Source: Mariprofundaceae bacterium (GTDB lineage Bacteria; Pseudomonadota; Zetaproteobacteria; Mariprofundales; Mariprofundaceae). Taken from it: a DNA stretch of 64,000 bases. The stretch covers positions 1 through 64,000 of the forward strand of contig JAJFLC010000023.1 of assembly GCA_021772895.1 (NCBI GenBank), written 5' to 3'. The first letter of the stretch is position 1. Each line of letters opens with the position of its first letter. The notes under the pieces are model-generated. The model was not told where the DNA came from. It saw nothing but the letters and a program-made list of their open reading frames with translations, and did no database searches. The position numbers were made by a program, and so were the translations under genes. Of this stretch, positions 35,700-36,276 are shown in pieces.

Positions 35700-35730
35700 T
35701 AAAAGAAAGGGCGAAGCCGAAACCCCGCCC
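35700..35730 (-). terminator. Probable intrinsic terminator after the DUF2188 gene
   Basis: On the minus strand a GGGCG / CGCCC stem (35726-35730 with 35709-35713) is followed by TTTCTTTTATTT. It sits 10 bases beyond the stop codon of the small gene. Confidence 0.65.
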
Positions 35731-35739
35731 ATCCATTAG

Positions 35740-35964
35740 TTAGCCACGTGGTGGAAATTTATCATTTCCGTGACTATCTTTGCTGCCAATCTTTCCATCC
35801 TTATTATGGATGACAAGTTCGCTGCCCTTGTTCTGACTGATCTCACGAGCACGATCAACCGCAGATTGTTTCGTGTCATGATGACTAGATGAACGCTGGG
35901 CACCACCGCCTTTAATATTCCAGCCGCCTTTTGAGTCTGGAACAACGTGTGTTGTATTAGCCAT
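35740..35964 (-). CDS. DUF2188-family small protein
   Basis: 74 residues. HVVPDSKGGWNIKGGGAQRS followed by SAVDRAREISQNKGSELVIHNKDGKI and HGNDKFPP matches the DUF2188 pattern of a short beta-rich protein. Function is not established; some relatives are stress-inducible. An AGGAG ribosome site lies 7 bases before the ATG and is enclosed in a hairpin (35965-35979). The nearest promoter is the CIRCE-bearing one at 36249-36276, so heat-shock type (HrcA) control is inferred. Confidence 0.8.
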   Translation of the reverse strand: MANTTHVVPDSKGGWNIKGGGAQRSSSHHDTKQSAVDRAREISQNKGSELVIHNKDGKIGSKDSHGNDKFPPRG

Positions 35965-35979
35965 TTCTAGCTCCTAGAA
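35965..35979 (-). promoter_or_regulatory. Hairpin holding the Shine-Dalgarno of the DUF2188 gene
   Basis: TTCTAG-GAG-CTAGAA on the minus strand: a perfect 6-bp stem with a 3-base loop that covers AGGAG, ending one base before the ATG. Such an arrangement could limit translation until melted, as in small RNA thermometers. The stem is AT-rich and short. Confidence 0.5.
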
Positions 35980-36235
35980 GGTGTCTTGTTCTTGTGCTAT
36001 AAATAGATATGATTCACGTGCCTTTTCTTGCTGAGATTAGGGCATCCATGCACAAGTCTACATGCCTTCTTTCATGTAAATAATTAATGTGTATCAACCG
36101 AGGGAGGGTTCAAGTTACAGCTTGGACTCTCTCCTCACACATGCCAGATAAGTCTGTAATCCATCACAAAACCGAAGCTAGCAGTTGTGCAATCAGTAAG
36201 CTTAATTTCACAAAGAAATCAAAGCATCTTACCAT

Positions 36236-36262
36236 TTAGCACTCCCAGAATGTAAGTGCTAA
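36236..36262. promoter_or_regulatory. CIRCE operator (HrcA-binding site)
   Basis: TTAGCACTC - 9 bases - AAGTGCTAA. The CIRCE consensus is TTAGCACTC-N9-GAGTGCTAA, so 17 of 18 arm positions match. HrcA represses heat-shock genes such as groE and dnaK through this site. No chaperone gene is in this window. The site overlaps a minus-strand promoter leading to the DUF2188 gene. Confidence 0.85.
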
Positions 36263-36276
36263 AACCAGCCTGTCAA
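36249..36276 (-). promoter_or_regulatory. Minus-strand promoter overlapping CIRCE
   Basis: On the minus strand: TTGACA (36276-36271), 16-base spacer, TACATT (36254-36249). The -35 box is perfect and the -10 has 4 of 6 matches. Transcription would start near 36242, inside the operator, and run to the DUF2188 gene about 275 bases downstream. Confidence 0.6.

What the first reader, a model, noticed from the sequence alone, without database searches (positions are those of the whole stretch)
36236..36276. CIRCE operator in a promoter with no chaperone gene
TTAGCACTC-N9-AAGTGCTAA matches CIRCE at 17 of 18 positions and overlaps TTGACA-N16-TACATT on the minus strand. HrcA sites nearly always precede groE, dnaK or hrcA. 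Here the only downstream gene is a 74-residue DUF2188 protein, after a leader of about 275 bases. Either this small protein is a new HrcA-regulon member, the leader is a heat-shock small RNA, or the site is the remains of a lost chaperone operon.
Basis: partly seen in the sequence, partly recalled or inferred. Interest (0 to 1): 0.66.

Follow-up and report, generated by a model that had tools for sequence, protein, structure and literature searches.

The report
Heat-shock operator on DUF2188 gene
A near-perfect binding site for the heat-shock repressor HrcA overlaps the promoter of a lone 74-residue protein of unknown function (a family listed as a phage-defence candidate), so this small protein is probably an unusual member of the cell's heat-shock response, although no experiment has yet shown it.

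Summary
The site at 36236-36262 matches CIRCE at 17 of 18 positions; shuffles give none, and about 0.002 such sites are expected by chance per genome. It lies over the -10 box and inferred start of TTGACA-N16-TACATT on the minus strand. The genome encodes HrcA and has CIRCE before groES, rpoH and hrcA. Across 74 genomes of the family there are 35 CIRCE sites with at most one mismatch: 34 precede groES, rpoH or hrcA, and this is the only exception. The promoter, the 3' half of the leader, the gene and a terminator recur as a unit in a congeneric genome at another locus, but without CIRCE. So the site is not the relic of a chaperone operon; this promoter gained the operator, or its relative lost it. 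A Riflebacteria MAG independently has a perfect CIRCE 25 bp before a DUF2188 gene. The protein matches PADLOC's unvalidated defence candidate PDC-S16. Best reading: an HrcA-repressed, monocistronic DUF2188 gene with a long structured leader. Binding, heat induction and the protein's function are untested.

The parts
36236..36262 (.). CIRCE operator TTAGCACTC-N9-AAGTGCTAA (1 mismatch to consensus), predicted HrcA site
36271..36276 (-). -35 box TTGACA; in the context GATNGCTTGACA it is conserved in the congeneric orthologue
36249..36254 (-). -10 box TACATT, inside the operator
35965..36242 (-). 5' leader of about 278 nt (transcription start inferred from the -10 box, not mapped)
   Evidence: inference
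36087..36142 (-). conserved leader hairpin (AUGUGU...ACACAU outer stem, GAGAGUCCAAG...CUUGAACCCUC inner stem), shared with G003 with a few compensatory changes
35740..35964 (-). 74-aa DUF2188 protein (PF09954), match to PADLOC PDC-S16; ribosome-binding site AGGAG at 35975-35971
35709..35730 (-). terminator-like hairpin after the gene, so the unit is probably monocistronic

Best explanation
The element is a functional HrcA operator. In unstressed cells an HrcA dimer bound to CIRCE covers the -10 box and start site of a sigma-70-type promoter and blocks transcription of a monocistronic unit: a leader of about 278 nt, the 74-aa DUF2188 gene and a terminator. When unfolded proteins occupy GroEL, HrcA loses activity, as known for other HrcA systems, and the gene is induced with groESL and rpoH. 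A congener has the same promoter, leader and gene elsewhere without CIRCE, so either this lineage gained CIRCE or the congener lost it. Shown by sequence: operator, promoter overlap, hrcA, canonical sites, unit structure, second CIRCE-DUF2188 case. Inferred: HrcA binding, repression, heat induction, start site. Not known: what DUF2188 does.
For: 17/18 match and 0 in shuffles; 0.002 expected per genome. HrcA gene, E 3.5e-54. CIRCE before groES and rpoH (perfect) and hrcA (3 mismatches) in the same genome. Family-wide, 34 of 35 sites with <=1 mismatch precede groES (20), rpoH (13) or hrcA (1) and the window's is the only one that does not, whereas 11 of the 16 classified 3-mismatch sites face none of these genes. 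The -10 box lies inside the operator, as at rpoH of the same genome: TTGACT-N16-TATAAT with CIRCE starting 12 bp after the first base of the -35 box, against 14 bp here. The promoter segment is conserved in the congener's DUF2188 unit (0 of 1000 shuffles as good). A Riflebacteria MAG has a perfect CIRCE 25 bp before a DUF2188 ATG, behind TTGACC-N17-TATAAT, and CIRCE also before its groES. HrcA control of non-chaperone genes is known: Waddlia wcw_0502 by ChIP-qPCR (PMC12038028), and genes of other or unknown function changed in a Lactobacillus plantarum hrcA mutant (PMC3842655).
Against: The operator is absent at the orthologous promoter of the only congener with the gene. Only 1 of about 125 other DUF2188 loci examined has CIRCE, so CIRCE is not a general feature of this gene family. 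The distance to the start codon (272 bp) is longer than at the groES, rpoH or hrcA sites of this family (at most 151 bp). No expression or binding data exist.
Confidence: 0.8

Rival explanations
1. The operator is real, but the product that matters is the leader: an RNA thermometer or a small regulatory RNA released from the 5' UTR, with DUF2188 secondary.
For: The 3' half of the leader is conserved in the congener beyond chance (score 60 against a shuffle maximum of 36), with a hairpin and some two-sided pair changes; the congener's leader is unusually stable (z -4.7).
Against: Only two sequences, so covariation is weak evidence. The window's leader is only moderately stable (z -1.8). No Rfam family reaches threshold. 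The element occurs in none of the 76 other genomes of the class, and no poly-U tail follows the hairpin, so a free sRNA is not indicated. The first half of the leader is not conserved.
Confidence: 0.12
2. Relic: the site is left over from a lost or moved chaperone operon and now regulates nothing, or DUF2188 by accident.
For: The place between a glycosyltransferase gene and holB is not where the congeners keep this unit, so rearrangement took place here.
Against: The promoter around the operator is homologous to the congener's DUF2188 promoter; groES, rpoH and hrcA all keep their own CIRCE sites; no chaperone gene or fragment was recognised among the neighbouring ORFs or beside holB in the congeners.
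Confidence: 0.03
3. Chance palindrome in an AT-rich promoter.
For: The operator is not conserved in the congener; with 3 mismatches, chance sites are common in these genomes.
Against: At <=1 mismatch about 0.002 sites are expected per genome, and the family-wide survey found no unrelated site at that stringency among the 34 others. It also falls exactly on a conserved promoter.
Confidence: 0.05

Closest known systems
HrcA/CIRCE class I heat-shock operons (groESL, hrcA-grpE-dnaK, rpoH)
   Same: Operator sequence, N9 spacing, overlap with a sigma-70-type -10 box and start site, hrcA in the genome; rpoH under CIRCE is described for Geobacter sulfurreducens (PMC545781)
   Different: The regulated gene is not a chaperone or regulator but a lone 74-aa DUF2188 protein behind a leader of about 278 nt
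Non-chaperone HrcA targets (Waddlia wcw_0502, PMC12038028; L. plantarum lp_1880 and lp_1268, PMC3842655)
   Same: Single non-chaperone genes of unknown or other function reported as HrcA targets
   Different: Unrelated proteins; those have binding or mutant data, this one has none
DUF2188 (PF09954) / PADLOC PDC-S16 phage-defence candidate
   Same: Full-length match (E 6e-23 and 8.7e-35)
   Different: Elsewhere often next to or at the head of a defence-like cassette (ThsB, HORMA/AAA, multiubiquitin/ThiF, GmrSD, HsdM); here alone between unrelated genes and controlled by CIRCE

Membership tests
HrcA/CIRCE regulon | Operator TTAGCACTC-N9-GAGTGCTAA with few mismatches | tested here: met
   17/18
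HrcA/CIRCE regulon | hrcA gene in the same genome | tested here: met
   PF01628 at G000:C19, E 3.5e-54
HrcA/CIRCE regulon | Operator overlaps a promoter or transcription start | tested here: met
   -10 box inside the operator, as at the genome's rpoH; start site not mapped
HrcA/CIRCE regulon | HrcA binds the site and represses; heat or loss of hrcA derepresses | not testable with these tools
   needs EMSA, an hrcA mutant and expression data
HrcA/CIRCE regulon | Operator kept at the orthologous promoter in relatives (supporting, not defining) | tested here: not met
   absent in G003, the only congener held that has the gene
HrcA/CIRCE regulon (canonical targets) | Target is groE, dnaK, hrcA or rpoH | tested here: not met
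   target is DUF2188; a non-canonical member
DUF2188 / PDC-S16 | Match to the family profile over its length | tested here: met
   PF09954 residues 6-65, 81 bits against cut-off 22; PDC-S16 residues 1-74 of 75
DUF2188 / PDC-S16 as a phage-defence system | Defence-island neighbourhood | tested here: not met
   nearest neighbours are a glycosyltransferase and holB; the further ones read as queC, a cytochrome peroxidase, tmk and mltG by eye, none a defence gene
DUF2188 / PDC-S16 as a phage-defence system | Protects against phage | not testable with these tools
   PDC candidates are described as unvalidated (PMC12988326)
Known structured RNA or heat-shock sRNA (Rfam) | Match over the gathering score | tested here: not met
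   no family at threshold on window or congener leader

The most novel reading that the evidence does not exclude
HrcA is used to put defence genes under chaperone-titration control: when phage proteins or other misfolding clients occupy GroEL, HrcA lets go of CIRCE and a DUF2188 defence gene is induced. The window unit and the CIRCE-DUF2188-ResIII helicase operon in a Riflebacteria MAG would be two independent cases.
Probability: 0.1. Interest if true: 0.75.

Novelty: new member of a known kind. Interest (0 to 1): 0.42.

Why it matters
HrcA regulons are usually tiny and built of chaperones and their regulators, so a non-chaperone member points to a protein the cell wants exactly when proteins misfold. 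DUF2188 is a widespread family without known function; a link to the heat-shock response, and separately its frequent place beside defence genes, give two testable leads on what it does.

Tried and rejected
Lost chaperone operon: rejected on promoter homology with the congener. Known RNA in the leader: RAGATH-7 scored 21.6 bits on the opposite strand against a threshold of 111.8 and did not recur in the congener's locus, so taken as chance. Leader homologues elsewhere: a DNA search of the family, a profile search of all loci held then and a covariance-model search of 78 class genomes found only the window and G003. CIRCE before other DUF2188 genes: about 125 further loci from genomes, viral contigs, plasmids and phages gave one case, L040; the CIRCE in L035 belongs to groES on the other strand. 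Fold search of the DUF2188 model (pLDDT 83, beta3-alpha-beta2) against PDB found nothing below E 0.001; the weak resemblance to AcrIF5 (TM about 0.5) and UPF0339/YegP is not used. No solved-structure relative by sequence.

Full report
What is there. The palindrome TTAGCACTC-CCAGAATGT-AAGTGCTAA at 36236-36262 matches the CIRCE consensus at 17 of 18 positions, and no shuffled window has such a match at up to 3 mismatches. With the window's base composition, 0.002 sites with at most one mismatch are expected in a genome of 2.45 Mb. On the minus strand TTGACA-N16-TACATT overlaps it; the -10 box and the inferred start site lie within the operator. The only mismatch is the first T of TACATT, so it may be the price of the overlapping -10 box (inference). 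Downstream on the minus strand come about 278 nt without another gene, a good ribosome-binding site, the 74-residue DUF2188 gene (35964-35740; PF09954, E 6e-23) and a terminator-like hairpin.

Is the repressor there, and are such sites reliable? The genome has one hrcA and CIRCE before groES-groEL, rpoH (both perfect) and hrcA-grpE (3 mismatches). I surveyed the 74 genomes held of the family and classified the sites by the gene they face. All 35 sites with at most one mismatch were classified: 20 precede groES, 13 rpoH, 1 hrcA, and 1 is the window's. Of the 16 three-mismatch sites classified, 11 face none of these genes. So at the stringency of the window's site the family shows no false positive, and the window's site is the only non-canonical one. 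(Notebook entries 2 and 3 differ on this count; 34 of 35 is the right one.)

Geometry. In this genome's rpoH promoter (TTGACT-N16-TATAAT) the -10 box also sits within CIRCE, which begins 12 bp after the first base of the -35 box; in the window the offset is 14 bp (offsets counted from the printed sequences). This is the expected arrangement for repression by occlusion.

History. A congeneric genome (G003) has an orthologue (70% identical by tblastn). A 310-bp block covering terminator, gene and the proximal leader aligns at 75%. Further upstream, the promoter segment and the 3' half of the leader align far better than 1000 shuffles (promoter 35 against a maximum of 29; 3' half 60 against 36), while the first half of the leader does not (19 against a mean of 18). 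The unit lies elsewhere there: beside mutS in G003, beside holB in the window. holB in the three congeners has no DUF2188 next to it, and the mutS flank of the window's genome has none. Thus promoter, leader, gene and terminator have moved as one unit. CIRCE is missing from G003's copy. With two sequences I cannot tell gain from loss. DUF2188 itself is patchy: 6 of 74 family genomes and 58 of 399 phylum genomes.

A second case. Among 66 DUF2188 loci from a scan of 84,980 species genomes, one, L040 from a Candidatus Riflebacteria MAG, has a perfect CIRCE 25 bp before the ATG, behind TTGACC-N17-TATAAT. The same genome has CIRCE before groES and before an FmdB-type zinc-ribbon gene. Its DUF2188 gene is followed after 12 bp by a ResIII/DEAD helicase gene. 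Of about 125 further DUF2188 loci in all, this is the only other one with CIRCE. One hit in 125 is not strong statistics for a general link: if each genome has about three CIRCE-controlled genes in 3,500, about 0.1 is expected by chance. It does suggest that CIRCE control of DUF2188 arose more than once.

What DUF2188 may do. No function is published in the papers found. The window protein matches PADLOC's PDC-S16 over its whole length (E 8.7e-35). PDC families were collected by 'guilt by embedding' and most are unvalidated (PMC12988326). In related loci the gene stands directly before ThsB (L035; 7 bp), before AAA-hypothetical-HORMA genes behind a divergent HTH/ImmA-IrrE pair (L303, L304), before multiubiquitin-ThiF (L239), before a GmrSD-domain gene (L268) and HsdM (L016). 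In the window it has no such neighbours. A defence role here is therefore a lead, not a finding. The predicted fold is a small beta3-alpha-beta2 unit (pLDDT 83) without a convincing PDB match.

The leader. The hairpin at 36087-36142 (minus strand) recurs in G003. The window's leader is moderately stable (z -1.8), G003's clearly so (z -4.7). A covariance model finds it only in these two genomes, each time before DUF2188, in 78 genomes of the class. That favours a cis-acting leader over a free small RNA, but the model rests on two sequences.

Verdict. The relic reading is contradicted, the small-RNA reading unproven. It is a new member of a known kind; binding, heat induction and protein function are not shown. 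The organism's name is withheld; the small single-order class it belongs to would fit Zetaproteobacteria, but I did not test that.

Noticed in passing
L002 (G000:C20:8587-8613), L073, L100-L106, L111, L274, L276, L277, L283, L285, L287, L288: rpoH (sigma-32) is preceded by CIRCE in many genomes of this family, in the window's genome with the -10 box inside the operator, so HrcA appears to control the heat-shock sigma factor here, as reported for Geobacter sulfurreducens.
   Followed up: partly
L133 (Hsp20 confirmed); 141-aa ORFs 28 bp from CIRCE in L142, L154, L160, L164, L175, L187, L207, L209, L225 look alike in length: 104 stretches of viral contigs hold an exact CIRCE; of 58 adjacent proteins scanned, 10 are Hsp20 and 2 Hsp90, suggesting that phages put small heat-shock genes under host HrcA control. 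Some contigs have two or three tandem CIRCE copies (L157, L228, L234).
   Followed up: partly
L241:1501-1527 and 1565-1951: In the Riflebacteria MAG a perfect CIRCE precedes an FmdB-type zinc-ribbon gene.
   Followed up: no
L035, L042, L016, L239, L268, L303, L304: DUF2188 genes often stand at the head of different defence-like cassettes (ThsB, HsdM, multiubiquitin/ThiF, GmrSD, AAA-HORMA), several behind a divergent HTH + ImmA/IrrE pair.
   Followed up: partly
L249:1726-2886, L125:2427-3623, L253:295-1455, L258:1729-3165: Proteins of 386-478 aa without PADLOC match (and, where scanned, no Pfam match) follow DUF2188 after 19-37 bp in several loci; possibly an undescribed partner.
   Followed up: no
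window 36026-36261 (+): Weak RAGATH-7 match on the strand opposite the leader (21.6 bits, threshold 111.8); not seen in the congener's locus, taken as chance.
   Followed up: yes
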